Positions 34 to 24,895 of a stretch of 64,000 nt of DNA are shown here, in pieces. A program made the translations under genes and the position numbers. How positions within the stretch are numbered: position 1 is the first letter of the stretch; every line of letters begins with the position of its first letter. The notes beneath the pieces were generated by a model. That model did no database searches. It had not been told where the DNA came from and was given only the letters and a program-made list of their open reading frames with translations. This DNA is from Acholoe squamosa (taxonomy: Eukaryota; Annelida; Polychaeta; Phyllodocida; Polynoidae), in NCBI GenBank assembly GCA_949317995.1, contig OX439048.1:67833375-67897374 (forward strand), read 5' to 3'.

Positions 34-44
34 TGTCATACTAG
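34..44 (-). repeat. Element 2 3' LTR, distal fragment cut off by element 1
   Basis: These 11 bases (TGTCATACTAG) match the first bases of the other LTR at 23546-23556. The rest of this LTR resumes at 9305, directly after element 1 and its duplicated CTAG. Confidence 0.85.
41..44. repeat. Target-site duplication of element 1 (left copy)
   Basis: CTAG at 41-44 is repeated at 9301-9304. The uninterrupted LTR at 23553-23556 carries CTAG once, so it serves as the empty site. Confidence 0.85.
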
Positions 45-462
45 TGTAGGGGTATGGTATTTTACACTTTAACGTTCATGCACCCGTGAGACTCAGACCT
101 AGGTCCTTCGGGTGTGGTGGGGGAATCCGGATGGCAGGTGGCAGCACCTGCCTCTGGGTTCGTATCCACTACACCAGGGGGCCTACCACTCGTCCGCCAC
201 ACGTCACGTGGCCGGTCTGAGTTTCGCGGGCTTTTCCCCTATATAAGGCTGGTCCTAGCCCTAGGTTCCTCAGTAGTGGTTTACCCACTGCTCAACCAGG
301 TTGTTACCCGAAAGGGTAACCGAATGCACTAGCAGCATGTAGTCCTCTGAGGCTGTGATCGTATGTAACGCAAGCTCTGAAATAAAAGCTCGGTTGCCTA
401 CCCGGAAACTTTTCTCTCTCTTCGTTATGATTTAATCTAACTTAACGAGACGAACCACTACA
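45..462 (+). repeat. Element 1 5' LTR
   Basis: 418 bp with 5-bp inverted ends TGTAG/CTACA. It contains a TATA box (CTATATAAGG near 239-248) and a polyadenylation signal AATAAA at 380-385, so U3, R and U5 can be placed roughly. A 72-codon ORF inside it is not considered a gene. Confidence 0.93.
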
Positions 463-463
463 C

Positions 464-481
464 TGGTGCCGTGACCAGTTG
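464..481 (+). promoter_or_regulatory. Element 1 primer-binding site (candidate)
   Basis: The sequence starts with TGG one base after the LTR ends, as expected for pairing with a tRNA 3' CCA end: TGGTGCCGTGACCAGTTG. The tRNA species was not identified. Confidence 0.6.
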
Positions 482-505
482 GTCTTCGGGTAAGCGCAGT
501 CAGAA

Positions 506-3247
506 ATGACTGAGCTGAGCCCAGTTAGGGGAAATGGCTCAAATCGTGAGCTAGACTCCCCGATGGAGGATGGTGAAATCAAGTCACCACCCCAAGGTAC
601 GGAGTGGAGGGATCCACTAGAACACTACCCTGATGAGTTAGAAGATGTAAGAAGAAACTTACATCATGAACTGGATGAATTTGGAGACTCCTTATTCATG
701 CCAGGAGGTACTTCGAAACCTGCACCAATGCATAAAAGTACTGCTCAATTTGGTAAATTACCATTTGAGGTACCAAAGCCTAGTGCAGGTATGTTTGAAA
801 CTCCATACAGTTCTCGAATTAAACACCAAAAATGTGGATTCGAAAAGAACAAAATGGACGAGCTTGAAGACATGAGAGCTGAATACGAGAAGATCCAGAA
901 GGATCTTATTACACTGACCGGAACCCGAGACAAGATTCTGACTGAAAACAAACAGTTGATATCGGAACGTCTCGATTACGATCAGAGTTGTAGACGCCAA
1001 CAACAATTGTTGTTGGATCAGATGGAGAAAGAAAAGCAAGATTTTCAACTCCAGCACGAACAGTATCGTGATGCACTATATACGGCGGATCTGGAATACA
1101 GAGCCTCGTATGATGAGTTGAATAGAACTAAACAAGAGTTAAATTCAACTCAATCGGCCTACGGCAAGTATCAAGAAGAGCTGAAGAAAATAGAATCAGC
1201 CTTCAAAGATGCTCGGGAAACGTACCAAAAACAGACCGATGAGCATGAAAAACTCAAAGATCAATTGATACGCGAATCCACAGATTTGGCTGTTAAACAG
1301 ACTAAAATGATGGATGATTATTCCGAACTGGAGGCTAAAGCTATCCAGATGTCAAAGTATCTAGAAGATACTGGTCGTGCAGTAGGCACTCTTGAATCAG
1401 ACTTCACTGTTTCAGGAATTGCCCTAAACACGACAAGTAACCAGATGTTCTCTTTGAGGGGCAATGACGGGGTAACAGAGACAACTGTACCTCGTTATGA
1501 AGGAGTAAAGAGTCATCAGGTTAGATTTACAGATAATACCTCTATACCTCTTGGTCTAGGTACGGGAAATAAAGGGGATAATTCTGCGAGTGGAGCTAAA
1601 CAAAGCCGCTCGGCAGGAAGCTCCACCTTTGACGGCGGATGGCCACAACAGTCACCTTTAGGGGGACCAAATGGCCCGTATGCCCAGTATGGATGGAATC
1701 AGTCCCAAACAGGAACGAATCCGTCCAATGGTAACACCCGGAACACGTCCGGAGGAACAACCGGACGAGCACCCGGAGGTTCCAGTACAGCTGGGGGGCA
1801 ATCCGGATGTGATCAAAGATCCGGACCCTCAAGCGATCGTTCCAGGAGCAGACCCTCTGCCAGTGGGACTGGTTTCAATAATGGAAATCAGTCGTATGGA
1901 ACAGGAGGAAACACTAATCCCAATAGTGGTTTCTTTAGCTTTGGTGGAAATACACAACCCACCAATGGTCCAGGGCCGGCTCCCCAAACCAGTGGATACA
2001 CCTTTTCACAGGTGCCTCCATACGGAGCAGGGGGATCAGGAGGTGGAGGAGGACCACCATCCGGAGGCCTTGGAAGTACTTATGGTACGAATCCTCCAAG
2101 GAAAAAGAGACTCAGTCGCCGAGTATCTCTTTCTCCAGGGTTACAAGCGCTGCATGATTCTAATGCAGCGATTGCTAACTTAGGTGTTGATTGTTACAAT
2201 CAAGGTCTGGACGATACGGAGATCATGGAATGGAGTAAGGGTTTAACCCTTACTGGATCCACGAATCCGGCTCGTAGAGTAGCTAAGATACCTACCCCCT
2301 TTAATGCCAAGAACCCTTGGAAGGAGGAGTATCAAGGCTGCGCGGATGTCTTTAACTGCAATGGATGGGGTAAAGCGGAAGCTCTGCCTTATTTAGTATG
2401 CTGGTTAAAGGAAGGCGACGGAAAAGGAGCCGTGGAACAATGGAGAGATTCTCAAATAACAGGAATCTCAGCCCATATGAAGTATGATGAACTCATAGAG
2501 ATTGCTTCATATTTATATGGGAATATAGTTGGAGAAGACCCTTGGCTGACGTTCACTAAAAGAACACAGAAGCCCAAGGAGTCTGCCAAAGTGTTCGGCT
2601 TAGAATGTCAACGACTGTTGCATAAAGCCAGACCTCAATGGAGACTAGATGATGAATGCTTCCTAGATGAGATGTTTAAACAATTCATTGAAGGATTGCG
2701 GAATCAAGAACACAGGACAGTAGCCTGTGAAGCTTGGAAGAATGATGCCTCTTTGACAGATTTGTTCCAGTCCCTAGATCATTATGATCGAAAGGCCCGT
2801 ATCTTTGCCGGGAAGGTACCCCAACGGATGTCAGCAATGATAATCCCGGAGGGAATACCCGAAACCGATTCATCCGAATCAGGGGAACCTGACGAAGATG
2901 AAAACGTTGGGGCCATTGGCCAAGGGAACCCCCGGTACAACCGGAACTGGGGAAAGAAACCGGGTTACGTCAAGGAGAAAGTGATCACTTCTAAACCTCC
3001 TGTGACTCAACCCGATACCAAACCCACGACGGGTCCTTCTTTATCAGAGGACCTGGTTAACAATTTGGTAAAGAAGATTACTGAAAATCTTAGGAGGCCT
3101 AAGCCTGATAGGACTGTTGTGACATGCTTCCGATGTCAGGAAACTGGGCATTATGCTGCCGAGTGTGAGGCAGATAAGCCAGTTTATAGAAACACTCGTT
3201 ACCGGAGCAATCCGGGTAAGGAGGACTCAGTGAAGAAGGAAAACTGA
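506..3247 (+). CDS. gag: Element 1 Gag polyprotein (913 aa)
   Basis: The structural protein that would form the virus-like particle. It starts at the first ATG after the primer-binding site. Residues about 115-300 are a long charged coiled coil. Residues about 365-550 are Gly/Ser/Asn/Pro-rich and probably disordered. Residues about 600-790 resemble a Ty3-type capsid domain (Trp-rich, helical). A CCHC zinc knuckle, CFRCQETGHYAAEC, begins at Cys874 and would bind RNA. At 913 residues it is long for a Ty3/gypsy Gag because of the added N-terminal coiled coil and low-complexity region. It ends SVKKEN-stop on the frameshift heptamer at 3238-3244. Confidence 0.9.
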   Translation: MTELSPVRGNGSNRELDSPMEDGEIKSPPQGTEWRDPLEHYPDELEDVRRNLHHELDEFGDSLFMPGGTSKPAPMHKSTAQFGKLPFEVPKPSAGMFETPYSSRIKHQKCGFEKNKMDELEDMRAEYEKIQKDLITLTGTRDKILTENKQLISERLDYDQSCRRQQQLLLDQMEKEKQDFQLQHEQYRDALYTADLEYRASYDELNRTKQELNSTQSAYGKYQEELKKIESAFKDARETYQKQTDEHEKLKDQLIRESTDLAVKQTKMMDDYSELEAKAIQMSKYLEDTGRAVGTLESDFTVSGIALNTTSNQMFSLRGNDGVTETTVPRYEGVKSHQVRFTDNTSIPLGLGTGNKGDNSASGAKQSRSAGSSTFDGGWPQQSPLGGPNGPYAQYGWNQSQTGTNPSNGNTRNTSGGTTGRAPGGSSTAGGQSGCDQRSGPSSDRSRSRPSASGTGFNNGNQSYGTGGNTNPNSGFFSFGGNTQPTNGPGPAPQTSGYTFSQVPPYGAGGSGGGGGPPSGGLGSTYGTNPPRKKRLSRRVSLSPGLQALHDSNAAIANLGVDCYNQGLDDTEIMEWSKGLTLTGSTNPARRVAKIPTPFNAKNPWKEEYQGCADVFNCNGWGKAEALPYLVCWLKEGDGKGAVEQWRDSQITGISAHMKYDELIEIASYLYGNIVGEDPWLTFTKRTQKPKESAKVFGLECQRLLHKARPQWRLDDECFLDEMFKQFIEGLRNQEHRTVACEAWKNDASLTDLFQSLDHYDRKARIFAGKVPQRMSAMIIPEGIPETDSSESGEPDEDENVGAIGQGNPRYNRNWGKKPGYVKEKVITSKPPVTQPDTKPTTGPSLSEDLVNNLVKKITENLRRPKPDRTVVTCFRCQETGHYAAECEADKPVYRNTRYRSNPGKEDSVKKEN

Positions 3248-6200
3248 GAGGGGGTGTCCACAATGGCAACCGGATTACCCCCAGAGTGAGTGATTGCCAT
3301 GACTGCCAGCCTATCGCAGCTTGCGGTACTGGCAAGAATCCTCTAGCGATTTCGCCCAGCAGTGAAGCTAAGGAGCCTGATCAGTTCCTTACTCATGAGG
3401 CTGGGGAGACTGATAGTACACCAGGTGTCAAGAACCGGCAGAAGAACACAGAGGGGAAACCCGATATCAGTCCAGAGGGAGCGGCCAATGAGTTGGCCAG
3501 GGTGGGGTGTGCCCAGTTCCCCCCGGGTCATCCTTGTCTCGAATTCTTAAAGGGATGTGGATTTGACCTCGGCGCTAAGACGGAACTTGCTAAGTATGCA
3601 AGTAGTCCTACCTACTTGAAAGGTAGGAGGTGGTACGCAGTTGTATCTGTGAGTGGTAGATCCGCTGAGTTTCTTGTCGATACGGGTGCTAGCCACTCCT
3701 GTATTGCTAAGAGATTCTACGATCTTTTGCCTACGAATCATGAAACTTTCACAACGGAAGGAAATGCTCGTACGGCCGACGGTAGCATGATACAAACGTT
3801 CGGTAGAACATGTATGAGGTTCAGTCTACAGGAAGATAAGGACTTCATCCTTACCCCTACTGTGGCGAACATCGCGGATGATGGTATACTCGGTCTGGAT
3901 TTTGCTGCATTATATGGAGCAAGGTTAGATTCCCAGAGGGGAATATTGGAAGTGAGAGACCCGTACCATCTCGAAGTACAATGTGTACTTAGGCAAGTAA
4001 GCAGTGTAGCCAGTGTAGCCCAGACTGTTAAGATACCACCAGGCACAGCCTGTGATGTCTTATGTCGAGCGGACAGACAGTTTTCAGGAAAAACTGGAGT
4101 TGTAGAGCCAGACATGGCCATGTTGTCAAGTATCGGATTGGAATCCGCTGATGTTCTAGTAGCTAACGCTGCTTGGACGGTGGTTCCTATATCCAATACC
4201 GGTAACAAGACTGTCTATGTACAGAAGGATACGATCCTTGGATCGGTTGTCTTATCCGAATTGATAGAAGACTGTAAACATGTTTCGGCACCCGGAGCCC
4301 CTTCCTCACCCGAAAGGAGCCCGGAACTAGACACTCTAGTAGCCGAAAGCCATGTAGAAAGTGATGAACAACGTGAAGCTCTAACTGACTTGTTGTACAA
4401 GTACCGTAAAGCTTTTGCAGCACCGAGTGAACAATTGGGGCGTACCGATAAAGTACTGCATACGATTGACACTGGTGAGAATGAACCTTTTAAGATTCCT
4501 TATAGAAGACTCCCACTAGCCAAAAAAAAGGTAGCTGAGGAGGAGATAGCTAAAATGCTTGAACAGGATGTAATAATTCCATCAACCAGTCCTTGGTCTA
4601 GCCCTGTGTGCATGGTGACCAAGAAAGATGGTAGCATCCGTTTCTGCATAGATTACCGGAAATTGAATGGTATGACCAAGAAGAATTCATATCCCTTACC
4701 ACGGATCGATGAGACTATAGACTCCCTTGGAGGTAAGCAATGGTATTGCTCTCTAGACTTACAATCCGGGTACTGGCAAGTGGGTATGCATCCGAAAGAT
4801 ATGGAGAAGACGGCCTTTTCCAGTCATATTGGATTATTCCAGTATAATGTGATGCCGTTTGGATTGTGCAATGCACCGGCGACATTTGAAGCCATGATGG
4901 AAACTTTATTAAGTGACCTTTTATGGAAGAAATGTCTCGTCTATCTAGACGATGTGATTGTCTTTGGAAAGACGTACGAAGAATGCTTGGAAAATTTAGG
5001 TATGGTCCTGGAAAGGATCATAACTAATGGTTTGAAGCTGAAACCCAAGAAGTGCGATCTTTTCAAAAGATCTATTAATTACTTGGGGCGAATAATCTCG
5101 AATGAAGGGATTAAAGCCGATCCGGAGAAACTGGATGCCGTGTCAAATTGGCAAGCACCCACGAATGCGAAAGAAGTTAGGTCCTTCCTCGGATTCTGTT
5201 CCTACTACCGGGACTTTATCCCAGGATATTCAAGGGTTGCCTTTCCTATCCAGAGTTTGTCCCACTGGACACCCGGGATCAGAAAGGAACGATTCCCTTG
5301 GGGACCCGAGCAAGACGAGGCCTTTATGAAAATAAAGGATTTGTTTGCTATCACACCTGTGTTGAGATACCCCACGGAGAATGATCATTTCATTCTAGAT
5401 ACTGATGCTAGTAATGAAAGCATAGGAGCCGCCCTTTCTCAGGTCCAGGATGGGGTCGAAGTTCCTATAGCCTTCGCTAGTAACACGTTGAGTAAATCTC
5501 AAAGAAACTATTGTACCACTAAACGTGAGTTGTTGGCTGTGGTGGTCTATACGAAGAAGTTCAAGCACTTTTTGTGGGGGAGTGATTTCACTCTACGGAC
5601 TGATCACTCTTCCCTCAGATGGTTATTGAACTTCAAAGATGCAGAGGGGATGATAGGTCGCTGGTTAGCGCACCTATCCGAATTCGGTCTAAATCACAGC
5701 CAGATTGAACACCGAGCCGGGGCAAAGCATTTGAATGCAGATGCTTTGTCTAGAATCCCAGTGAGGAAATGTGCAAATGCTGAGTGCACTGATTGTGGAG
5801 CACACAATGCTGTGTTGGCAGGGATTCGAGTTCCATTCGAAACCCATCCGGAACATGTCTTGAATTGGTCCTTGGAGACCATCAGGCAGTTCCAGAAGTC
5901 TGATGCAGTCACATCACGTTTGATTAAATTCCTTAATCAGGGTATCTGTCCCCCAAGACCCGTAGTGTCATTGGAGAACAGAGAGATGAGACGATTCTTA
6001 GCTCAATGGGCCGAGCTAAAAGTCCGGGAGGTTGGCAAGAAATGTGCTAAATGCACAGGATGTGTCACCCCCCGACGCGGAGACATGGTCCGGCACTATG
6101 TGACTTCGCATGGAGAGGGCCTGGAGGCAGCCATAGATCGGGTGATGAAAATTCACTCCGAACTCTATGGCAACCTTAGGGGCCTCAATGCAGAGAAGTT

Positions 6201-7572
6201 GGCTTCCCTCACACCGAGTACGAAGCAGTTTGCGCCTACGGTTCCTGGTACTAACCAGAAACTAAAGGCTCGGTTTGCCCAGACTCCCGGGTCCGGCAAA
6301 CTAGAGTACGCTCAGGAGGAGTACGATCTGTTAAACGAATGGAGAAGCAACAAGGCCCGCCGTCGTGGTGGGGCTTATGTAACTCCATCCGGAGAACAGG
6401 TCCGAAGCCGCAGGGATTACCGCCAGGGACCCTCTGTAGCAGATAGGAAGAGACAGGCGTCTGAATCTCCAAGCCGAGCCAGGTCACCACTGGAGGCGCT
6501 GGAGAGACAGACAAATGGGGGAAGGAAGAAGCCACATCTTCCATCTCCTACTGGAACTCCTTCCCATTATGGGCGAGCACCAACTCCACGAGGTGCACAG
6601 AACCCGACATTCTTTGGTGTCAGTGGACCGAGTGGCCAGTCCGCCCGGAAACACGCGCCTTTGAATGTCAAAGACCCGAAGCAGTACCCTGCTATGGGCC
6701 CACCCGGACCAGAGATGCAAATCTTTGATCAGTACGGGAGGGTCAAGCAGGAACTGCCGACAGTAGGAGGTCAAGCTCCCCGACCTACAATGAGTGCTGT
6801 GGTGAGACAACGTCCACCCGCACCATTGTTGACGGCCAAAGACCTTAGAAGGGAATTGTCACGGTTGCCCCTGGTTCAGGGATTACCAACTCAAGGCCCT
6901 TCTTCGACCACTGCTAGTGCGGTTACTACTGCGGTTGCTTCTTCGCACACGCAGGTAGCTGTCACTGCGAGTGGGTCTGGAGCACAGCCGAAGCCTCAGG
7001 GTCAGGTACCCCCACCTGGTGCTGTGGTTCATCGGCCTAAGCTGATCCAGACAGTGGAGACCTTCTTCAAGAAGGAGGACAAATTGTCTTGCAATATCCA
7101 GAGCAAACAATTTGAGACGCTACAGCACCATCTGGAAAACCTCCACCTGGACATGTATCGTCGGACCGTGTCGAGCACTCTCCAGTGTATTGACGCGATC
7201 CAGAAGTCAGAGATCAACCGAATCTCGACTCAGATCAAAGCGGATGTTGCCAAAGATAAGCAGGAAGCTGCTAATCTGCGGCAGGAGGCCCTATCCGAGA
7301 AGGAAACAGCTTCTCAGATGCTCGACCTAGAACGAGCAACGAACATGAAGAACCAGCAAAAGTTCTTCAAGGTCTTCGGAGTTATCATGGATAACTGGGA
7401 CGGTACACCTGAGCATGCTTTGAAGCTGTTCGAAGCACGCCAAAAGGTGAAACTTACACCTGCTGTCCCCGCATTGGCACCTACGGATGGAACTGGTATG
7501 AACCCCCCTGTTCAGCCACTGGCTCAACAACCGGGTCCAAACCAGCCACCCGAGGAGAACATGGAACAGTAA
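3220..7572 (+). CDS. pol: Element 1 Pol: protease, reverse transcriptase, RNase H and a non-integrase C-terminal extension
   Basis: Residue numbers count from 3286, a GTG in the open frame that is probably not a start codon. The frame is open back to 3220 and is likely entered by -1 frameshift. The aspartic protease motif DTGAS starts at Asp132. RT follows with YLDD at 553-556. The RNase H motif DTDAS has its second Asp near 707. The usual linker (PP..VS.E.RE....QW..L.VR) is present to about residue 915. Instead of the HHCC/DDE integrase there is C920-x2-C923-x13-H937-x4-H942, then a basic Pro/Ser/Arg-rich region, a Ser/Thr/Ala stretch and a coiled coil (about 1250-1390). The ORF is unbroken over 1428 codons. 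Confidence 0.9.
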   Translation, partial: GGLSEEGKLRGGVHNGNRITPRVSDCHDCQPIAACGTGKNPLAISPSSEAKEPDQFLTHEAGETDSTPGVKNRQKNTEGKPDISPEGAANELARVGCAQFPPGHPCLEFLKGCGFDLGAKTELAKYASSPTYLKGRRWYAVVSVSGRSAEFLVDTGASHSCIAKRFYDLLPTNHETFTTEGNARTADGSMIQTFGRTCMRFSLQEDKDFILTPTVANIADDGILGLDFAALYGARLDSQRGILEVRDPYHLEVQCVLRQVSSVASVAQTVKIPPGTACDVLCRADRQFSGKTGVVEPDMAMLSSIGLESADVLVANAAWTVVPISNTGNKTVYVQKDTILGSVVLSELIEDCKHVSAPGAPSSPERSPELDTLVAESHVESDEQREALTDLLYKYRKAFAAPSEQLGRTDKVLHTIDTGENEPFKIPYRRLPLAKKKVAEEEIAKMLEQDVIIPSTSPWSSPVCMVTKKDGSIRFCIDYRKLNGMTKKNSYPLPRIDETIDSLGGKQWYCSLDLQSGYWQVGMHPKDMEKTAFSSHIGLFQYNVMPFGLCNAPATFEAMMETLLSDLLWKKCLVYLDDVIVFGKTYEECLENLGMVLERIITNGLKLKPKKCDLFKRSINYLGRIISNEGIKADPEKLDAVSNWQAPTNAKEVRSFLGFCSYYRDFIPGYSRVAFPIQSLSHWTPGIRKERFPWGPEQDEAFMKIKDLFAITPVLRYPTENDHFILDTDASNESIGAALSQVQDGVEVPIAFASNTLSKSQRNYCTTKRELLAVVVYTKKFKHFLWGSDFTLRTDHSSLRWLLNFKDAEGMIGRWLAHLSEFGLNHSQIEHRAGAKHLNADALSRIPVRKCANAECTDCGAHNAVLAGIRVPFETHPEHVLNWSLETIRQFQKSDAVTSRLIKFLNQGICPPRPVVSLENREMRRFLAQWAELKVREVGKKCAKCTGCVTPRRGDMVRHYVTSHGEGLEAAIDRVMKIHSELYGNLRGLNAEKLASLTPSTKQFAPTVPGTNQKLKARFAQTPGSGKLEYAQEEYDLLNEWRSNKARRRGGAYVTPSGEQVRSRRDYRQGPSVADRKRQASESPSRARSPLEALERQTNGGRKKPHLPSPTGTPSHYGRAPTPRGAQNPTFFGVSGPSGQSARKHAPLNVKDPKQYPAMGPPGPEMQIFDQYGRVKQELPTVGGQAPRPTMSAVVRQRPPAPLLTAKDLRRELSRLPLVQGLPTQGPSSTTASAVTTAVASSHTQVAVTASGSGAQPKPQGQVPPPGAVVHRPKLIQTVETFFKKEDKLSCNIQSKQFETLQHHLENLHLDMYRRTVSSTLQCIDAIQKSEINRISTQIKADVAKDKQEAANLRQEALSEKETASQMLDLERATNMKNQQKFFKVFGVIMDNWDGTPEHALKLFEARQKVKLTPAVPALAPTDGTGMNPPVQPLAQQPGPNQPPEENMEQ
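3238..3282 (+). promoter_or_regulatory. Candidate -1 ribosomal frameshift signal at the element 1 gag-pol junction
   Basis: The heptamer GGAAAAC (3238-3244, gag frame G GAA AAC) directly precedes the gag TGA. After a 5-nt spacer, GGGGGT (3250-3255) pairs with ACCCCC (3277-3282), and an inner TCC/GGA pairing extends the stem. The pol frame is -1 to gag, is open from 3220 and has no ATG near its beginning, so frameshifting is the simplest route to Pol. Glu-tRNA can re-pair with GGA using a G-U pair, and Asn-tRNA can shift to AAA. Confidence 0.65.
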
Positions 7573-7583
7573 AAAACTGTTGC

Positions 7584-7763
7584 ATGAAGATCGGACATAA
7601 TTGTGTGTCCCGGGGTTCTATTACCCATGCATTGTTGGATAAGAAACCATTTTTTTATCCAACCCGTATTGATTCGGGTACCAAACTGTACCCTAATCCG
7701 GAAACTGAAAACAGAAGGAGAAAACAAACAAGTCACTCTGGAGGAGGAGTACGAATGCTGTAA
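7584..7763 (+). CDS. Possible small ORF after element 1 pol (59 aa)
   Basis: An ATG ORF 11 bp after the pol stop. It overlaps a second open frame (7603-7833) that encodes a Cys/His-rich stretch (ECCKHHNCTVPQCNDC) but has no ATG near its beginning. The two frames may represent one protein joined by a frameshift, or neither may be translated. No family was recognised. Confidence 0.25.
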   Translation: MKIGHNCVSRGSITHALLDKKPFFYPTRIDSGTKLYPNPETENRRRKQTSHSGGGVRML

Positions 7764-7884
7764 ACACCATAATTGTACTGTGCCACAATGTAATGACTGT
7801 GCCTATTATAAAATCATGGACAATTTACACTAATATGGACTTTTGAACTACAAACCGGATTTACTACTACACCACTACTATTTG

Positions 7885-8070
7885 TGAGCTAGCACTACAG
7901 GCATCAGGGTTTAGCTACGCCCATAGAGTCCATCAACAGTCTACAACTGGATCTACTATAACCTCCAGTTAGCTAGCACTACAGGCATCAGGGTTTAGCT
8001 ACACCCACCAACAAGTTTTACTATAGCACTTCAGGCATCAGGGTTCAGCTCGCCCATACCAAGCCATCAG
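7885..8070 (+). repeat. Short direct repeats in the element 1 3' region
   Basis: The phrase GCACTACAGGCATCAGGGTT (or close variants) occurs near 7892, 7976 and 8025. The rest of the 3' region to 8870 is AT-rich with no convincing ORF. Confidence 0.6.
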
Positions 8071-8871
8071 CAGCATCCGACTCCTGTTACATCCTCCAAT
8101 CATGAAAACAAGTAACTTTGTTGATATTATTATATTGTATGTAAAATTGTATTTATAACTATATAATATCTTTTATAAAGATATATTATTATATAAGGGT
8201 ACCTATAAATATACTGGATCTGCGAATCCTAAAAGTTATTTAAGGTAATCCTAGACCTATAACTGTCTATATAGGTCATTCCTGGTCTCAATATATTAAG
8301 AGACTATAATTCTTCTGTAACTTGTAAATATAAAACACTAAGGTATAAACTGAGCTGCGTCTCAAAAGTATAAATATTTTTCTATAAAATAAGAGAAGGT
8401 CCAACGGATTTCTCTAAACTTAGTATTGTATTACTCAGGTTAATACCTAATTGTGTTCATATAGTATCAGATTAATTGTCCATATCTGATCATTAATATT
8501 TAATTCACTCTGTAAAGTAGACAGAGCTGTTAATTTAAAAAGTCGAAAATTTTTTTTCCGGGTTCAATAACCATAATACGATCATTGTTAACAACCACCG
8601 GTCCTTTTCAGGACCCTACTGTTGTCAAAACGTTACTATAAATCTGTGATAATTGTATATTTATCATTTATGGTTGTTATAAGCTAGTGATGGAAATAAC
8701 ATGAACGACACTCGATGCTATTATTGTATAATTTTTCAGAAATAGGATAGTCTTATACTATAGCCTATTTCACATCGAGCAAGTGTAATTAATACCCCTT
8801 TTTAGTATTGTAAACAATCACTTACTAGGTTATTAATACACTGCGGTTTAATTACCCCCAAGTTATTGTCT

Positions 8872-8882
8872 AAGGGGGGCAG
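8872..8882 (+). promoter_or_regulatory. Element 1 polypurine tract
   Basis: AAGGGGGGCAG abuts the 3' LTR, where the plus-strand primer would be generated. Confidence 0.7.
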
Positions 8883-9300
8883 TGTAGGGGTATGGTATTT
8901 TACACTTTAACGTTCATGCACCCGTGAGACTCAGACCTAGGTCCTTCGGGTGTGGTGGGGGAATCCGGATGGCAGGTGGCAGCACCTGCCTCTGGGTTCG
9001 TATCCACTACACCAGGGGGCCTACCACTCGTCCGCCACACGTCACGTGGCCGGTCTGAGTTTCACGGGCTTTTCCCCTATATAAGGCTGGTCCTAGCCCT
9101 AGGTTCCTCAGTAGTGGTTTACCCACTGCTCAACCAGGTTGTTACCCGAAAGGGTAACCGAATGCACTAGCAGCATGTAGTCCTCTGAGGCTGTGATCGT
9201 ATGTAACGCAAGCTCTGAAATAAAAGCTCGGTTGCCTACCCGGAAACTTTTCTCTCTCTTCGTTATGATTTAATCTAACTTAACGAGACGAACCACTACA
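8883..9300 (+). repeat. Element 1 3' LTR
   Basis: Same length as the 5' LTR with one visible substitution (A at 9064). The TATA box and AATAAA are conserved. CTAG follows at 9301-9304. Confidence 0.93.
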
Positions 9301-9304
9301 CTAG

Positions 9305-10643
9305 TGATTGGCATGATCAAGTTGTCATATGAGAAATATCATAAGACTAGTGGTATATAGTGTAATTATCTCAAGGCTCTTATAAATAGTGTTCTTTCCA
9401 GTTGTCACTGGTTTATTCAGCTTTAGGCAACATGTAAGAAATATCAATCATACAGTAGTTAGTATGTAGGTAATTTGTACATACAGTAAACATACAGTAA
9501 TTTATAAAGTACAATGTTCTGTTCCACTCCACCTGTGAGGTATTAATAATACAGTGTCCAGCATATTTCTAGGTGGGTTCCCACACCTAGCTCCTGACCT
9601 GCTGCTTAGAGGAATAATGTAATAATGAGTAACTTTACCCTCTGGTGGAAGTCTTGAAGGAGATAGCCTCTGGCCACTAATGGTAGGAAACCAATGCCTG
9701 TCTAGCATAGTTTCACCATAGTGCAGTGGTATAGCAGGTAGCAGGAGATGACTGGAGATGTTACCTCTAGAGCGGTTCTTGGTGATGTGTCTTCCTGGAG
9801 GTGCAGACAGGCTATTTGTAGCAAATCTTGGAAAAGCACCTCCAGACTGACTGGAGCCAGCAGCATCTGCCTAACTCTACAATTGTTTGAGGGGACTCTT
9901 TCAAGTGTCACAGGGGGACAAAGGACCCCCATGGACGCCGCTATGCCCCCCATTGTCTTGGTCGGTTCTGCATCTTTAGACCCTCATATCTCGGTCGTTT
10001 ATGCGTTTATAACCGCCATTTTGGGCATGCGCGGAGTTGAATATGCCAAGTTTATAATGCCCACTGGATAGGCGCGTAATTTGCGCCGGTTTGTCTGTAG
10101 TGCACTCGGAGCTCCTTTCAGTCTCCATAGCATAACTTCCTTAATAATGAGAGTTCCGCCTTGATCTTGGGCTCATTTTGACCGTCTAATTATGGGCTTT
10201 CCATAAATGCTTTGATATTTGACCTAGCTTGCTCAGGAGCGACGCTAGAGCGACCGGAAGGTTATGGCGTCGTGCTTATGTAACCCATTGTTCAGTCCTT
10301 AGAGTGCTCAGACACTCATGACGGCGTCAGCGGTGCTCAGGCACCCGTGACGGCCGGTTGCATTCACTTACAAGTTATTAATTTGTGCATTGAACCATGA
10401 GGTCGCACACTGAGACCCTTATTCTTATTATATTGTGCAGTGAACCATTAGGTCGGAGCCTTTGATGTCAGAGAGAGTGTTTGTAACTGACCTGGCTGGT
10501 GTGCAGTGGGGCATGAACGCTCTTATACAAAGTTTGAGCGCTCTTATAGCTCTTAGAACCAACCTATGTATTAATCTCATAGATATTCTTTGATTAATAC
10601 GAAATATGTCAGAATTTATGGAATAATAAAATGGTATATCATA
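9305..10643 (-). repeat. Element 2 3' LTR, main part
   Basis: Aligns end to end with 23557-24895 (both 1339 bp). On the sense (minus) strand a TATA-like TATAAGAG lies near 10545-10550 and AATAAA at 9416-9411. On the plus strand, CTTATAAATA near 9379-9388 could serve as an antisense TATA box facing the plus-strand ORF at 12569. Confidence 0.9.
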
Positions 10644-10647
10644 GAAT

Positions 10648-10660
10648 ACTCCCTCTCCCC
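10648..10660 (-). promoter_or_regulatory. Element 2 polypurine tract (candidate)
   Basis: On the minus strand GGGGAGAGGGAGT lies a few bases before the 3' LTR. Confidence 0.55.
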
Positions 10661-10999
10661 GAGAGAATGCGAAACTCCGTCATTTCGCCGAGGGAATGTA
10701 CGATTTATACAATTTTTACCTTATTTTGGAGTTATATACTGTTTTGTAAGAGGATTTGAAGTAATGGGGAGTGCTTCAAATGCAATTTTTGTGGTAGAGC
10801 TTTGTCAGTATAAACAATTTTCTCCTGGGTATAAGTACATTTCCGAGTTTCTATATCTTACTATACCTGAGCTTATTTGCTCATGTGACATCAATTTTGG
10901 GTACAATTTCCCATTTTTATGTACAACATTCAATTTGGCAAATAGTGTGCAATTTTGGCATTCAATGTTCAATTTAGCGTGCAAATTGAACATAAATGA

Positions 11000-11335
11000 C
11001 AATTTTAGTGTGCAAATTTACAATTTAGCGTGTAATTGCGTTCAATTGACAATTTCAGTATGCAAATATATAATTTTGCGTACATTTGGCAATTTAAGTG
11101 TGCAAATATATAATTTTCGCGTATATTTGGCAATTTTAGTGTGCAAAATATATAATTTCGCGTACATTTGGCAATTTTAGTGTGCAAATATATAATTTCG
11201 CGTGTATTTGGCAATTTTTGGTGTACAAATATATAATTTTTGCGTACATTTCACAGTTTTAATATGCCAATATATAATTTTGCGTTCAATTGATAGTTTC
11301 TGTATGTACATATATAATTTTGCGTACAGCTTGGA
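11000..11335. repeat. AT-rich tandem repeat (about 40 bp) in the element 2 3' region
   Basis: Repeats of GTGTGCAAATATATAATTTT followed by GCGTACATTTGGCAATTTTA, with increasing divergence toward both edges. It lies between env and the 3' LTR of the minus-strand element. Confidence 0.8.
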
Positions 11336-11399
11336 TACACATAGAAATGTTGATTTTCTAAAAATCTGACTTCAGTGTATGAATTGGGTACAGACATAC

Positions 11400-11785
11400 A
11401 GTATAATGTGCAACATATAATTCAAATGTAAATTGGATACAACTTACAATCTAGTGTGCAAACATACAATTTTTGTGTGCAAATTGGGTACAAGCGTACA
11501 ATCTGGTGTGCAAACATACAATTTTAGCGTGCAAATTGGGTACAAGCGTACAATCTGGTGTGCAAACATACAATTTTAGCGTGCAAATTGGGTACAAGCG
11601 TACAATCTGGTGTGCAAACATACAATTTTAGGGTGCAAATTGGGTACGAGCGTACAATCTGGTGTGCAAACATACAATTTTAGTGTGCAAAATTGGGTAC
11701 AAGCGTACAATCTGGTGTGCAAATCTACAATTTTAGTGTGCAAATTGGGTACAAACGTACAATCTAGTTTACACTATACAATTTT
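11400..11785. repeat. Tandem repeat (51 bp) in the element 2 3' region
   Basis: About seven units built on GTGCAAATTGGGTACAAGCG, then TACAATCTGGTGTGCAAACA. Wording such as GTGCAAAT and TACAATTTTAG is shared with the neighbouring 40-bp array, so the two probably share an origin. A 61-codon ORF here is a by-product of the repeat. Confidence 0.85.
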
Positions 11786-12568
11786 TGGGATTTGAGACAA
11801 ATTTTTCCGAGGGCCGGAAAAACAAAGTACTTCATGTACAATAGGCTTGTTTGTCTCTGAGTTACTCATTGATCTTGCTATATGGGTGTATTAATTGGCA
11901 ATTTCGGCAGTGGGCCGCTGCTTAATTGACTTTTCCCTAGCCTTCTTGAGTATGTGTCCCTGGAAGAGATTATTTGGTGAGTATCTTAAGTAAACATGTT
12001 TTATGTCAACCATTTTCTCAACAATTTTTTTTTTTTTTTTTTTCATTCATTTTTCCAACAATTTTCTTGGATACCTAAAGTGTGTTACTTTAAGTAAACC
12101 TTGGCATAGTATACAAGTGCTAGTGGGTACAAAAACTGTCTTAGTTATCTACCTGCATTCATGTATATTAATGTTAGATTTGTACAATTTTACAATTTGT
12201 AGTTTGCAATTTCGCAATTTTGCGCGTATATGCGCGCATTAATCATCGATTTTGTGAGAATACCATAGATTTTCATATTATACATCAACAAGTGGCTGTG
12301 TATATAATTTTTTTTTCTAATACTTTGATAATTTCATTGACAGTGGAGGTGTGTCAGGAGTGAGATGTGAGTCTCCTCCCTGGTGTGCTCATGCAGTGGT
12401 GGCACTTGAGGTGTTAGGTGCCAGATTTTGGCATGTGTCTGTGGCAGTGCCTAGCTTGGTGTCAGTGGACAGTTCAGGGTGGGGGGGGGGTGTGTGTGTG
12501 TCCATTTAAGGAGTGTGTGGCTGGTATTGGAGCATCAGTTCCTCTCTGGAAGTCACTGCTGTAGTACC

Positions 12569-13048
12569 ATGGCCCACCTACAAGCTCTCTTTGCTCTGCC
12601 TGTCCCCCAGGTGATGGAGGTGGGGAGTCCAGTTAGGGCCCTGGTTGAGTCTAACCAGACCATCCATTATGGGTACATAGTGAGTAATTTCAAGGAGATC
12701 ATTGAGCATGGTGATGTGATGGTCTGTAATTACTCCTGCCACTATTTCTTAGGCTCAGCCTTGCGTCGGGGGGCCACTGTGGCCCTTCTGACTAGGGCCT
12801 TGGGTAATATGGGCTTCTGGCCCATGGACTATAACCTAGGGCCGCGGGAGCGAGTGCTATGGGATTATCTGTTGGCGGCATCCCTCCTCGATCTTGCGGC
12901 ATCCGGGAATCCATCCACGGCTGCCGAGTATGGGCTGGGGATGCTGGAGGCCCGGCTCGCTGAGTGGGAGCAGGATCACGGCCATATGTATGGCTCGGAC
13001 TCGGACTCTGACTCTCCCATTGATGTTGAACCCGAGGATCTGTGGTAG
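12569..13048 (+). CDS. Antisense accessory ORF in element 2 (159 aa), unknown function
   Basis: This ORF lies on the strand opposite to gag-pol-env, tail to tail with env (134 bp between the stops). The chosen ATG has an excellent context (ACCATGG). The frame is open 90 nt further upstream, but without an ATG in good context. The protein has a mixed globular-looking N-terminal part with hydrophobic and Leu-rich helices (for example LLAASLLDLAASG) and a very acidic Asp/Ser/Glu tail ending PEDLW. No signal peptide, membrane segment or known domain was recognised. It could be expressed from an antisense promoter in the 3' LTR. It might instead be a captured host exon or a chance ORF. Confidence 0.5.
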   Translation: MAHLQALFALPVPQVMEVGSPVRALVESNQTIHYGYIVSNFKEIIEHGDVMVCNYSCHYFLGSALRRGATVALLTRALGNMGFWPMDYNLGPRERVLWDYLLAASLLDLAASGNPSTAAEYGLGMLEARLAEWEQDHGHMYGSDSDSDSPIDVEPEDLW

Positions 13049-13181
13049 GATCCCGGCTGACTGAAACCTAGGGTGTAAAAACCCGCCATCCCAAAGGCCC
13101 TTTTCAGGGCCGGCAAATTGTCCGAAAAGTTCTGAATACTGTCTCTGATGTGTTGTCTCCTGGTGGTGGACTGGGGGCAGC

Positions 13182-15392
13182 CTAGGCTGTGGGCAGTCTG
13201 TGGTATATTTTAAAATATATTGTGGGATTTGTGCGCTTGACCACATTTTTCTTGCCACAGTGTGTCTGTGCAAATTTCTTAAGGTACTTCATTATTCTGT
13301 AGGCTGAGTAGATGGTCAGGGTGAATAATATAGCAATTATCAGGGTGTGGGTTTCCTGAATTGTGAGGAAAGGGGTGTGGGTTTCCTCTGTAGGGGTTAA
13401 TTTGGTAGGATTCTTATCTGGGAGCAATTTGTGTAGGGGCAGCTCGGTGACTAGTCTGAATGCTTTGGCTGTAGGCAGGTAGGCTACAGTCCCTCCTAGT
13501 CCGTATAATTTGAGTAGTATGTATACTATAAAAATGTGAGCTGATATCCCTAGGATGAGTGCTAAGCTTTGGAAGATTGGATGCTCTGTAACTCGACGTA
13601 GGTATGATTCCTCGTAGCGCGTTTCCATTTCCTTATTAAGGTTGGAGGCATCTTTTAATACTGTTTTGGCAAAGGGCTCTAAATTTAGTTGAGTAATATC
13701 ATCCATGATTGGATTTTCCTGTAGTTTTTCTAAGGTTCTAGAAAGGTTCACTACTGGGAAATTTGGAAGATTCTCTCTTTCATCTGGTTTGGTTTCAGAA
13801 ATTTTGTTAAGTGCTGCCATGAATGGTAAATTAATTGTCTTGAGAATGTAATGAAATGATAAGGTTGAGTTACAGGGCAACCTTGTGTTTGGAAGAGAAA
13901 ATTCTCCTACACTGATTGTGCACCCACAGGGTACACCTATGATTGAGTAGGACTGGGCCTTCCGAGTTTCAGACGTTTTACCATGGCAGTTGATAAAGTA
14001 ATGGGGTTCATTAGTAGTGACCAGATACTCATCTTCAGAAATGGAAATAGCATGGGTGGTAGGTGCTTGCAGTGGTGAAACTGTAAACTTGCAATGTTCC
14101 TTAATCTGTCGAGCCTGGTTAGTAAAAATGGCTACAGGGCATGTAGGCCTGTGTTTATAGATTCTACCATTTACATCTCTGCATACCTTTACTGTAGTAC
14201 CTTCACATGCCTGCATATCTGCTGAGTCCAATTCGCGAAATAATGATTCGTCGTAAGATACTGCTAGAAACTCAGTTGTGGTTTGTAATTTTGTGACTCC
14301 TCTGGTGGGGGTCTCCTGTGTGTCTATAGGCATGGGTGATGTAATCATTTGGTACAGTTTGAAGGTTGAGGTGGTAGATTGAATTATAATGTCCAGATGA
14401 ATATATATATGGTGAGCTGAGTAAGTGTATGAGGTCAGCTTCTGTGAATAATAGAAATCTAAGTCATTAATTGTGACTTGTGCTCCAGGGTGTGTAATCC
14501 TAAGTTTGTTATTAATGTCAATTAGGTATCTAGCAAGGTCTGAGGGTGGTACTATATCAGGGGTTAGGATCCCTGATGATAGCATCCTCAGGGCTGCATT
14601 TGTCCTTTGCAGTGATTGAACTGTATTCATTCTTGCTGCTATGATAATTAGTGCATCATTTAATACTTGCATTTTCTCCCTTTGAGTTTTCTCGTGCCTT
14701 GAATATGAGTCAAGTGACCTGGACATGTTAGAGGCCCACCGGTTGACGGTGTCACCTATGGTGTTGATTGTGCTGTCTAGTACCTTCTTATCTTGGATGT
14801 ATGCTTTAACAAACTTATCTTGTCTGTCTGTGATCTTTTCAATGAGATTAGCTGCTTCCTGATCTTGTTTAGCAAATTTCCTTAGTATTTCATCTATGTT
14901 CTTGAGCTGTCCCATTACTTGGTTTACATCTTCTACTGTGGCTAGACCTAGCACACCGCGAAACAGGGGTGCTAGAAAACCCAGTATGGCCTCTCTTTTG
15001 GCCTTGTCCAATGTGTTTATGGGGTTGGATAAGAACAATTTGATGGAGGCTAGTGTTTCATTTATCTCCTTGTCTGCAATTTCCAGCAAGGTGTCTAGCT
15101 CCTTAGCTTGTTGGATATTTTGGCCAGAGGTATGATCTTGTAGAGTAGGAGTGGTCAAATGGAGTATTCTATCCCTTATGGATCCTTGGGTAACGGGTGC
15201 CCGAGGTATCTTGTAGGGGATAGCTAACAATAGTGTTGTGGTTGTATGTCCATTGACCAATGGTTGAGGGCTAGGTTTGAATACTACTCCTATGTTTTGT
15301 CTCACCACAGGTGTATAACCTGCAGTAAGTGGTTCAATAGTATATAATAACAGCATAGTTAGCAGTATGGGTGAAACTCTCAGTGTCCCCAT
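13182..15392 (-). CDS. env: Element 2 envelope-like membrane glycoprotein (736 aa)
   Basis: The third gene position and the architecture identify it; the sequence was not matched to a named Env family. The ATG at 15392 has context ACCATGG and opens a signal peptide (hydrophobic to about residue 24, ending near LTA). The frame extends six codons further 5' but without an ATG. A long ectodomain follows with coiled-coil-like heptads in the first third, paired cysteines around residues 390-520 and several N-x-S/T sites. A transmembrane segment lies near residues 602-626 and a second hydrophobic stretch near 683-705, followed by a basic tail. The frame is intact. It would presumably be made from a spliced subgenomic RNA. 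Confidence 0.75.
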   Translation of the reverse strand: MGTLRVSPILLTMLLLYTIEPLTAGYTPVVRQNIGVVFKPSPQPLVNGHTTTTLLLAIPYKIPRAPVTQGSIRDRILHLTTPTLQDHTSGQNIQQAKELDTLLEIADKEINETLASIKLFLSNPINTLDKAKREAILGFLAPLFRGVLGLATVEDVNQVMGQLKNIDEILRKFAKQDQEAANLIEKITDRQDKFVKAYIQDKKVLDSTINTIGDTVNRWASNMSRSLDSYSRHEKTQREKMQVLNDALIIIAARMNTVQSLQRTNAALRMLSSGILTPDIVPPSDLARYLIDINNKLRITHPGAQVTINDLDFYYSQKLTSYTYSAHHIYIHLDIIIQSTTSTFKLYQMITSPMPIDTQETPTRGVTKLQTTTEFLAVSYDESLFRELDSADMQACEGTTVKVCRDVNGRIYKHRPTCPVAIFTNQARQIKEHCKFTVSPLQAPTTHAISISEDEYLVTTNEPHYFINCHGKTSETRKAQSYSIIGVPCGCTISVGEFSLPNTRLPCNSTLSFHYILKTINLPFMAALNKISETKPDERENLPNFPVVNLSRTLEKLQENPIMDDITQLNLEPFAKTVLKDASNLNKEMETRYEESYLRRVTEHPIFQSLALILGISAHIFIVYILLKLYGLGGTVAYLPTAKAFRLVTELPLHKLLPDKNPTKLTPTEETHTPFLTIQETHTLIIAILFTLTIYSAYRIMKYLKKFAQTHCGKKNVVKRTNPTIYFKIYHRLPTA

Positions 15393-16219
15393 GGTGCTTG
15401 TGTAAAGCAAGTTTGCTGTTTAAAGTCTTGTCAAATTTGTAGTGATTTGGTGCTGGTAAAGTCTAAGTGTATGGTGTAACACTTTAAATGAAGTGGTTCA
15501 AACTGTACCTTTGCAAGATTGAGCTGTCTTGGCAATATGTCCGGTGAGTCTATAGAGATTGACCAGTAAATGGTAAGGTCAGGTTGAAGGTGAAGTAGGT
15601 GTGTTCTTTATCCTAGTGCAGTCTCTCCTCATGGAGAAGTGGGCTGGCTAATTCCCAAGTGGGGTCCTGTAGACTTGTGTTCCAGACTGCAGCTGGATGA
15701 AGACTGATGGTGGGCTATGGTCCACAGTGCTTCTTATGTAGCCTACCCTACCCACATCCATTGTGGGCCTGGTATTGTTTCTCTGGAGTCAAGGCCTTGA
15801 TCTCCAGTGTCTGCAACTGTGGGGGTCTATTGTGTACTCTGTGTACTGGTAATTAGCTCCTCCTGTCATCCAGGACAGCCATTCATGACCGTCTAGACAG
15901 TTGTCTGAGTGTAGCTTATAAGGTCAATTGATCTCTATAGACTGCTGTGTTGGCATAGCGCGCTCTTTCATGTGGGGATTAGGCTTTAGACACTCCATTG
16001 TGTTACCCTTACTCTTCTTAGACTTCATGTCTGCTTTACTTGGGGGGTCCCAGTCTTTGACCCTTTTCAGAGGCAATAACCTACTGATATATTTACAAAT
16101 TTGATTGGCTTTATATACATAGTAATTCATTATCAGTCACACATGTCTTATGTGTGGATGAAGAGAATTTGTAATATATTTTGAAAATCTTATGTTCTTT
16201 TGGTATCTCAATTTTGTTT

Positions 16220-20951: not shown

Positions 20952-20984
20952 TGGCCCATCGGCACTGTGACATCCTAGTTTTCC
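20941..20984 (-). promoter_or_regulatory. Candidate -1 frameshift signal at the element 2 gag-pol junction
   Basis: On the minus strand GGAAAAC (20984-20978) is followed by the gag TAG (20977-20975). After a 7-nt spacer there is a perfect 9-bp hairpin, TCACAGTGC pairing with GCACTGTGA (20970-20962 with 20949-20941), with a 12-nt loop. Pol is in the -1 frame with no ATG start. Confidence 0.7.
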
Positions 20985-22612: not shown

Positions 22613-22984
22613 GATGGAGGGTGTGGGGGAGGTGTCTCTGGAGGAGTGGCTGTCAAAGGCTGGAGCTGGGGTGGAGGATCTAGATGAGGGTGTGGATCCA
22701 CCCCCTGAGGCAGATCCTTCTTTTCCTGAGGTAGATAGCGTGAGTTGGGCGTCCTGTAGAGATCCCTGGGAAATGTTGGATCCCTGAGAACTGGTTGTTC
22801 CCTGAGTAGACAGGGTGGGTGGTGTGGGGTCTACTGAGTGTGGGTCTGTTGTATTGGAGGCTGGTTTGCCTCCTGTGGGCCTCCTAGATCTTGGTGGGAG
22901 GGAGACCTCTTCAACAGGCCCCTGACTACGTAAGGTCTTTGTGTGTTGTTCTGCCAGCTTGACTGATAAGGCCTTGATGTGTGT

Positions 22985-23330
22985 GGTGGACCTCACTGAC
23001 GTGTGGGAGACCTCTCTGACGTGTGGGAGACCTCACTGACGTGTGGGAGACCTCACTGACGTGTGGGAGACCTCTCTGACGTGTGGGAGACCTCTCTGAC
23101 GTGTGGGAGACCTCACTGACGTTTGGGAGACCTCACTGACGTATGGGAGACCTCACTGACGTTTTGGGAGACCTCACTGACGTTTTGGGAGACCTCACTG
23201 ATATATGGGAGATCTTACTGTTGTGTGAGAGATCTCATTGATGTGTGGGAGATCTCACTGATGTGTGGGAGATCTCACTGATGTGTGGGAGATCTCACTG
23301 ATGTGTGGGAGATCTCACTGGTGACCTTGG
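22985..23330 (-). repeat. 20-bp tandem repeat in the element 2 5' leader
   Basis: About 17 units of GTGTGGGAGACCTCACTGAC (plus-strand reading). They are near identical at the low-coordinate end and drift to GTGTGGGAGATCTCACTGAT at the other. They sit between the 5' LTR and gag. Confidence 0.9.
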
Positions 23331-23524
23331 TGGGTATGGTGTCAAGGTCAAGGTCACTGGGTGGGTGGAGTGGGTCTTACTGTGTGTATGCGGTACCAGC
23401 TTTAATTTACTGTGTGCATGATTGTTCTCAGTTGCGGTACCAGCTTTAACTTACTGTGTGCATGATTGTTTTTAGTTGTGTTACCAGCTTTAATTTTTAT
23501 GAGCCTGTGAGATATGGGATCTTA

Positions 23525-23542
23525 GTAGGATGTTCTCCACCA
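23525..23542 (-). promoter_or_regulatory. Element 2 primer-binding site (candidate)
   Basis: Three bases inside the 5' LTR end, the minus strand reads TGGTGGAGAACATCCTAC, which begins with the TGG expected for pairing with a tRNA CCA end. The tRNA was not identified. Confidence 0.5.
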
Positions 23543-23545
23543 CTT

Positions 23546-24895
23546 TGTCATACTAGTGATTGGCATGATCAAGTTGTCATATGAGAAATATCATAAGACT
23601 AGTGGTATATAGTGTAATTATCTCAAGGCTCTTATAAATAGTGTTATTTCCAGTTGTCACTGGTTTATTCAGCTTTAGGCAACATGTAAGAAATATCAAT
23701 CATACAGTAGTTAGTATGTAGGTAATTTGTACATACAGTAAACATACAGTAATTTATAAAGTACAATGTTCTGTTCCACTCCACCTGTGAGGTATTAATA
23801 ATACAGTGTCCAGCATATTTCTAGGTGGGTTCCCACACCTAGCTCCTGACCTGCTGCTTAGAGGAATAATGTAATAATGAGTAACTTTACCCTCTGGTGG
23901 AAGTCTTGAAGGAGATAGCCTCTGGCCACTAATGGTAGGAAACCAATGCCTGTCTAGCATAGTTTCACCATAGTGCAGTGGTATAGCAGGTAGCAGGAGA
24001 TGACTGGAGATGTTACCTCTAGAGCGGTTCTTGGTGATGTGTCTTCCTGGAGGTGCAGACAGGCTATTTGTAGCAAATCTTGGAAAAGCACCTCCAGACT
24101 GACTGGAGCCAGCAGCATCTGCCTAACTCTACAATTGTTTGAGGGGACTCTTTCAAGTGTCACAGGGGGACAAAGGACCCCCATGGACGCCGCTATGCCC
24201 CCCATTGTCTTGGTCGGTTCTGCATCTTTAGACCCTCATATCTCGGTCGTTTATGCGTTTATAACCGCCATTTTGGGCATGCGCGGAGTTGAATATGCCA
24301 AGTTTATAATGCCCGCTGGATAAGCGCGTAATTCGCGCCGGTTTGTCTGTAGTGCACTCGGAGCTTCTTTCAGTCTCCATGGCATAACTTCCTTAATAAT
24401 GGAAGTTCCGCCTTGATCTTGGGCTCATTTTGACCGTCTAATTATGGGCTTTCCATAAATGCTTTGATATTTGACCTAGCTTGCTCAAGAGCGACGCTAG
24501 AGCGACCGGAAGGTTATGGCGTCATGCTTATGTAACCCATTGTTCAGTCCTTAGAGTGCTCAGACACTCATGACGGCGTCAGCGGTGCTCAGGCACCTGT
24601 GACGGCCGGTTGCATTCACTTACAAGTTATTAATTTGTGCATTGAACCATGAGGTCGCACACTGAGACCCTTATTCTTATTATATTGTGCAGTGAACCAT
24701 TAGGTCGGAGCCTTTGATGTCAGAGAGAGTGTTTGTAACTGACCTGGCTGGTGTGCAGTGGGGCATGAACGCTCTTATACAAAGTTTGAGCGCTCTTATA
24801 GCTCTTAGAACCAACCTATGTATTAATCTCATAGATATTCTTTGATTAATACGAAATATGTCAGAATTTATGGAATAATAAAATGGTATATCATA
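23546..24895 (-). repeat. Element 2 5' LTR
   Basis: Intact 1350-bp LTR that is the uninterrupted counterpart of the split 3' LTR. GTAG follows at 24896-24899 as it precedes position 34. The small ORFs in it are duplicated in the other LTR and are not genes. Confidence 0.92.

What the first reader, a model, noticed from the sequence alone, without database searches (positions are those of the whole stretch)
6010..7572. Intact, recently inserted LTR element whose integrase has been replaced by a zinc-finger-like and coiled-coil tail
The sequence shows a single open pol frame with protease, RT, RNase H and the usual post-RNase H linker. It then switches, where the HHCC domain should start, to C-x2-C-x13-H-x4-H, a basic disordered region and a coiled coil. 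No DD35E core is visible in any frame of the element. Yet its LTRs are nearly identical and it has a clean 4-bp target duplication, so it moved recently. Either integrase came in trans, possibly targeted or recruited by the new tail, or the tail works in another way.
Basis: partly seen in the sequence, partly recalled or inferred. Interest (0 to 1): 0.88.

Follow-up and report, generated by a model that had tools for sequence, protein, structure and literature searches.

The report
Retrotransposon copy missing its integrase
This is a young, damaged copy of a very common jumping element: an internal deletion removed its integrase and fused the stump to the end of the element's own third gene, so nothing foreign was acquired and the copy is ordinary.

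Summary
The anatomy is as described: one pol frame (3286-7572) with protease, RT and RNase H, no integrase in any frame, a zinc-finger/coiled-coil tail, LTRs differing at 1 of 418 bases, and a CTAG target duplication. The window's genome (1.48 Gb) holds many near-identical copies with integrase in place: the uninterrupted pol/integrase boundary occurs at 775 sites, and integrase was read in 7 of 7 copies examined for it. Those copies have a separate third ORF after pol. The "new tail" is the C-terminal 515 residues of that ORF3, identical in the 82 other best-scored matches (1254-codon frame in 78 of 82). The window copy lacks 4139 nt (integrase, spacer, about 739 codons of ORF3). The breakpoints share 2 nt exactly, and there is no GT on the donor side, so canonical splicing is excluded. 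Among scored candidates only the window has the junction; an exact genome-wide junction scan did not complete. Two of 88 paired sites carry other large internal deletions. Still unexplained is what ORF3 does: it sits in the env position, and a distant relative (L001) has a partly homologous ORF there.

The parts
41..44 (+). target site duplication CTAG (left)
   Evidence: empty site in the other LTR of element 2 at 23547
45..462 (+). 5' LTR, 418 bp, TG...CA
464..476 (+). primer binding site, tRNA-His type (assignment recalled); its first 11 bases recur in relative L001
   Evidence: sequence; L001 match at 11671
506..3247 (+). gag, 913 aa, CCHC zinc knuckle; full-length copies have a gag frame of 917 codons stop to stop
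3286..6028 (+). pol: protease, RT, RNase H and post-RNase H linker
6028..6029 (+). deletion junction: 4139 nt absent here relative to full-length copies; 2-nt exact microhomology
   Evidence: measured on L010 and L003; three more pol-side and six more ORF3-side copies print the same letters there
6029..7572 (+). tail = C-terminal 515 residues of ORF3, fused in frame to pol
6043..6111 (+). C2H2-like zinc finger (C920 to H942), by eye the second of two in ORF3; the first lies in the deleted part
7099..7395 (+). long helix / predicted coiled coil of ORF3
   Evidence: single sequence
7573..8882 (+). AT-rich non-coding 3' region, also present in full-length copies
8883..9300 (+). 3' LTR, 418 bp, one mismatch to the 5' LTR
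9301..9304 (+). target site duplication CTAG (right)
23547..23563 (+). uninterrupted target site in the other LTR of element 2

Best explanation
The element is a young internal-deletion copy of a Ty3/gypsy LTR retrotransposon whose full-length form is about 13.4 kb: LTR, gag, pol with integrase, ORF3, LTR. A 4139-nt deletion removed integrase, the pol-ORF3 spacer and about 739 codons of the ORF3 frame, and joined the RNase H linker in frame to the last 515 codons of ORF3. Shown: the full-length copies, both breakpoints, the identity of the tail, and the shared LTR ends. Inferred: the deletion arose by a microhomology-guided template switch during reverse transcription, inside a particle whose integrase came from a full-length copy (about 60%), or by a deletion in the chromosome after a full-length copy had inserted (about 40%). 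In neither case did the tail act as, or recruit, an integrase.
For: Tail search of the window's genome: 83 of 9542 first-look candidates were scored. The 82 besides the window match residues 6-520 at 100% inside a different, longer frame (1254 codons in 78 of 82; 1252, 919, 907 and 648 in the others); only the window has the fusion frame. Upstream of the tail in L003 lies more ORF3, not pol. Four copies read on both sides of the gap all carry pol of 1419 codons stop to stop, with an integrase 76.5% identical to that of P0001 over 413 aligned positions; they are 99.82-99.87% identical to the window copy over its first 5989 nt and 99.74-99.84% over about 3045 nt of the 3' part. Three further copies, picked for short ORF3 frames, also keep integrase. 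Breakpoints. With one mismatch allowed, the uninterrupted pol/integrase boundary occurs 775 times and the uninterrupted ORF3 side 731 times; the backwards control gives 0 (these 23-24-base patterns do not prove that each copy is whole). The four copies have identical LTR pairs (0 of 418) and 4-bp duplications; over 12 copies read, 9 have 4 bp, 2 have 5 bp, 1 has none. Two other large internal deletions in the family join at 1-nt and 4-nt overlaps. Among protein relatives, the 22 others in the window's well-supported clade all carry the integrase zinc-binding domain.
Against: The exact-junction pattern scan did not complete (11 requests). The 251-nt junction query scored only 40 of 2233 candidates and the tail query 83 of 9542, so further junction copies cannot be excluded. 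Reverse-transcription timing and in-chromosome timing cannot be told apart. Six substitutions in 5483 nt of gag and pol are private to the window among the five copies compared, which would also fit a small sub-lineage.
Confidence: 0.96

Rival explanations
1. Domain swap: integrase was replaced by a captured host gene or foreign module, giving an element with a new way to integrate or target.
For: Before the genome could be searched this looked possible: the tail's codon usage correlates 0.15 with gag plus pol core (contiguous 512-codon blocks of that core against the rest: minimum 0.45) and its GC is 0.544 against about 0.46. No protein-database match was found.
Against: The tail is the C-terminal part of ORF3 in 82 other copies of the same family, in the env position. 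The distant relative L001 has an ORF after pol that is homologous around the fingers (E 8e-6 in a one-sequence comparison) and is likewise richer in GC than its gag and pol.
Confidence: 0.01
2. Retrotransposed spliced RNA: the missing part was removed as an intron that normally makes ORF3 mRNA, as for the cerv mRNA of Cer1.
For: Cer1 makes its post-pol protein from a spliced mRNA (PMC10309623: abstract, passages found by term, and section 15 read).
Against: The bases following the junction on the pol side are not GT for any placement within the 2-nt ambiguity, and the breakpoint lies in the middle of ORF3.
Confidence: 0.02
3. An amplified integrase-less sub-family with this fusion that parasitises the full-length copies.
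For: Gag, protease, RT, RNase H, the PBS and both LTRs are kept. Six substitutions are private to the window among five copies compared.
Against: No second junction copy among 83 scored tail matches or 40 scored DNA matches.
Confidence: 0.05

Closest known systems
Internal-deletion (non-autonomous) copies of LTR retrotransposons (general knowledge, recalled)
   Same: Shares LTRs, flanking coding sequence and duplication length with full-length copies; lacks an internal block; breakpoints with short microhomology
   Different: The fusion happens to stay in frame, which made it look like a domain swap
Ty3/gypsy (Metaviridae) LTR retrotransposons
   Same: Protease-RT-RNase H-integrase order in the full-length copies, TG...CA LTRs, mostly 4-bp duplications
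   Different: The window copy lacks integrase; the family carries an ORF3 with no credible Pfam match
Cer1 of C. elegans with CERV (PMC10309623; abstract, found passages and section 15 read)
   Same: A non-env ORF between pol and 3' LTR; CERV has a Cys-rich loop that the authors suggest may be an RNA-binding zinc finger
   Different: No sequence comparison with CERV was made here; splicing and function of the ORF3 here are unknown
Bdelloid rotifer LTR elements with varied ORF3s (PMC5408684; abstract and outline seen)
   Same: Extra ORF after gag and pol
   Different: The ORF3 types named in that abstract are env-like, GDSL esterase or DEDDy exonuclease; this one shows zinc fingers and a coiled coil

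Membership tests
Internal-deletion copy of an autonomous LTR family | near-identical full-length copies with the missing part exist in the same genome | tested here: met
   four copies read on both sides; boundary counts
Internal-deletion copy of an autonomous LTR family | both breakpoints map to single points in the full-length copies | tested here: met
Internal-deletion copy of an autonomous LTR family | same LTR ends and duplication length as full-length copies | tested here: met
   four full-length 5' LTRs 0 of 418 different from the window's; 9 of 12 copies with 4-bp duplications
Ty3/gypsy LTR retrotransposon (full-length form) | protease-RT-RNase H-integrase order | tested here: met
   Pfam on relative P0001
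Ty3/gypsy LTR retrotransposon (window copy) | integrase present | tested here: not met
LTR element with captured host domain | extra domain absent from sister copies and of host origin | tested here: not met
   the tail is ORF3 in 82 other copies
CERV-like accessory protein | ORF between pol and 3' LTR, not an envelope protein | tested here: inconclusive
   position met; no credible Pfam match; an envelope role is not excluded beyond that
CERV-like accessory protein | spliced mRNA and nuclear RNA-export function | not testable with these tools
   needs RNA and cell data
CERV-like accessory protein | sequence homology to CERV | not tested
   CERV was not fetched

The most novel reading that the evidence does not exclude
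The deletion copy is ordinary, but the ORF3 it exposed belongs to an uncharacterised kind of accessory protein in an abundant, very young Ty3/gypsy family: two C2H2-like zinc fingers, long basic and proline-rich stretches, and a C-terminal coiled coil. It would act like CERV of Cer1, binding the element's own RNA (or DNA) through the fingers and multimerising through the coiled coil, to export the genomic RNA or guide it. It is shared with a distant relative on another contig.
Probability: 0.3. Interest if true: 0.5.

Novelty: new member of a known kind. Interest (0 to 1): 0.15.

Why it matters
It shows how a deletion can mimic a domain replacement: the fused frame stays open, codon usage shifts and database searches return nothing, yet the tail is the element's own third gene. 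It removes a claim of integrase-free or tail-targeted integration. It also points to a very young, abundant family (hundreds of sites) with an uncharacterised ORF3, which is the part worth further study.

Tried and rejected
Diverged integrase fold in the tail: no Pfam match above cut-off, PHROGs best E 0.18, PDB sequences best E 0.67; 21 integrases from relatives gave nothing. The AlphaFold model of the tail is a long helix plus low-confidence stretches; that of the C-terminal half of L001's ORF3 is worse (mean pLDDT 43.6). No fold search was run.

Host-gene capture: suggested by codon usage and GC and by empty protein searches; dropped. Direct comparison of the tail alone with L001's ORF3 was weak: ordinary local alignment did no better than shuffles, single-sequence hhalign gave P 0.025 and 0.04 at two places, and a gap-tolerant score was reached by 2 to 37 of 400 shuffles depending on settings. 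It became significant (E 8e-6, one-sequence comparison) only when the part upstream of the junction was included; the 497-residue N-terminal piece of ORF3 had no match in L001.

Viral contigs gave no relative of the tail, pol or L001's ORF3. Genome contigs gave none with the pol alignment and one, L001, with P0052.

Other checks: three copies with shortened ORF3 frames were read; all three keep integrase. Of the 12 of 100 listed pol sites without an ORF3 partner within 9 kb, two have a tail match; the rest were not followed up.
Full report
What is in the window. The element lies at 45-9300, with 418-bp LTRs that differ at one base and a CTAG duplication on each side. It sits inside the low-coordinate LTR of an older LTR element on the minus strand. 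The other LTR of that older element still shows the uninterrupted site at 23547. Gag is 506-3247; pol is one frame, 3286-7572. Pfam finds the protease, RT and RNase H, and only two matches below cut-off in the last 520 codons. Integrases of relatives, 21 sequences, find nothing significant in the element (best E 0.075), while an RT control finds its target at E 0.0.

First clues. A search with the RT region gave 7848 significant proteins among 7961 scored, of which 120 were listed. The close relatives (P0001-P0024 without P0009) are 68-79% identical in that region and all carry the integrase zinc-binding domain. In most, homology to the window stops at about residue 915, where their integrase begins; a few local alignments run on to 920-1039 at low identity (19 relatives were aligned). 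In a tree of 50 rows (the window, element 2, and those of P0001-P0060 with long coverage) the window's pol falls in a clade with 22 relatives, all with that domain (support 100/99; the inner group of 12 rows has 93/80). The tail alone matched nothing, and its codon usage and GC differ from gag and pol. That could mean a captured gene. But a distant relative, L001, a contig labelled as a Calditrichota MAG and probably contaminating eukaryotic DNA (inference), has an ORF of 1051 aa after its integrase. Part of that ORF resembles the tail, weakly: near the zinc finger and near a WDG motif. L001 shares the first 11 bases of the primer binding site.

The answer. When the window's own genome could be searched, 83 of 9542 first-look candidates were scored with the tail. 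One is the window. The other 82 match residues 6-520 at 100% identity within a different frame, of 1254 codons in 78 of 82. Seven of these were fetched with 1.5 kb on each side, L003-L009. In L003 the tail is preceded by more ORF3, including by eye a further finger, and all seven print the same upstream letters. The same 3' region follows in all seven, up to the same LTR in six; in L008 the match breaks off before the LTR. Upstream stretches of four of these copies contain the same LTR, gag and pol; pol has 1419 codons stop to stop and includes integrase. These stretches are 99.82-99.87% identical to the window copy over 5989 nt. The window copy equals L010 up to 6029 on the pol side and L003 from 6028 on the ORF3 side; 4139 nt are absent. 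The breakpoints share 2 bases exactly and, by eye, 6 of 8 in an imperfect stretch. No placement gives a GT on the donor side, so canonical splicing does not explain it.

How common. The uninterrupted pol/integrase boundary occurs at 775 places and the uninterrupted ORF3 side at 731, allowing one mismatch; the backwards control gives 0. These are short patterns and do not prove that each copy is whole; integrase itself was found by tblastn in 7 of 7 copies tested. Of the first 100 listed pol-side sites, 88 have an ORF3 partner within 9 kb, 78 of them at exactly the full-length spacing. Two have large deletions of 1253 and 2161 nt, whose breakpoints overlap by 1 and 4 nt. Twelve are unpaired. 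Among 40 scored matches of a 251-nt query across the junction (of 2233 candidates), only the window matches end to end. The exact-junction pattern scan was requested 11 times and not answered, so uniqueness is likely, not proven.

How it works, and timing. LTR pairs of the four full-length copies are identical, and duplications are 4 bp in 9 of 12 copies read, 5 bp in 2, and none in 1, where the left LTR follows what looks like a polypurine tract, as in a tandem pair. The window copy has the family's normal ends and duplication, as if inserted by the family's normal integrase (inference). If the deletion arose while RNA was copied, the integrase came from the full-length copy that made the particle; if it arose later in the chromosome, the copy arrived with its own. 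I favour the first at about 60% because the copy is so young and because short-microhomology deletions recur in the family, but the data do not decide. The in-frame fusion is taken as chance.

Against this reading. Only part of the candidates was scored, and the scored ones are the best, so their identity is partly selection. Six substitutions in the 5483 nt of gag and pol compared are private to the window among five copies, which would also fit a small sub-lineage.

What remains interesting. Pieces of ORF3 have no credible Pfam match, nor has L001's ORF. The two are homologous over a 67-column stretch from the end of the first finger through the second (E 8e-6 in a one-sequence comparison); the N-terminal piece shows no match. 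ORF3 stands in the position of CERV in Cer1, a nuclear protein needed for export of the unspliced RNA (PMC10309623: abstract, passages and section 15 read). The parallel is one of position and general make-up; homology to CERV was not tested.

Noticed in passing
34-44 and 9305-24896, minus strand: A second, older LTR element with about 1.35-kb LTRs (1351 aligned bases, 11 mismatches), gag (22996-20975), protease-RT-RNase H ORF (20951-17940), integrase in a separate overlapping ORF (18022-16220) and an env-position ORF (15410-13182) without Pfam match above cut-off or PDB-sequence match of note. The window's element is inserted in its low-coordinate LTR.
   Followed up: partly
3220-3285: Gag and pol frames overlap by about 28 nt in what I count as a -1 relation; a GGAAAAC stretch just before the gag stop is followed by a GGGGGT...ACCCCC hairpin, a possible frameshift signal.
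   Followed up: no
L003-L009, L010-L013: The family looks very young: the 82 other best-scored tail copies encode an identical 515-residue stretch (a selected list, 83 of 9542 candidates scored), and four full-length copies have LTR pairs identical at 418 of 418 bases.
   Followed up: partly
L018/L019: One copy has a polypurine-tract-like sequence directly before its left LTR and no matching duplication, as in a tandem of two elements sharing an LTR.
   Followed up: no
L001 (JAADFT010000005.1): A contig binned in a bacterial MAG (Calditrichota) carries a Ty3/gypsy element and its ends overlap by 91 nt; probably eukaryotic contamination.
   Followed up: partly
38444-40043, 51296-53166, 58306-60114: Long tandem arrays with units of 56, 26 and about 37 nt.
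   Followed up: no
28769-29028: Inverted repeat with 130-nt arms, 92% complementary and no spacer.
   Followed up: no
53704-55122: ORF of 472 aa that reads like a non-LTR reverse transcriptase (by eye).
   Followed up: no
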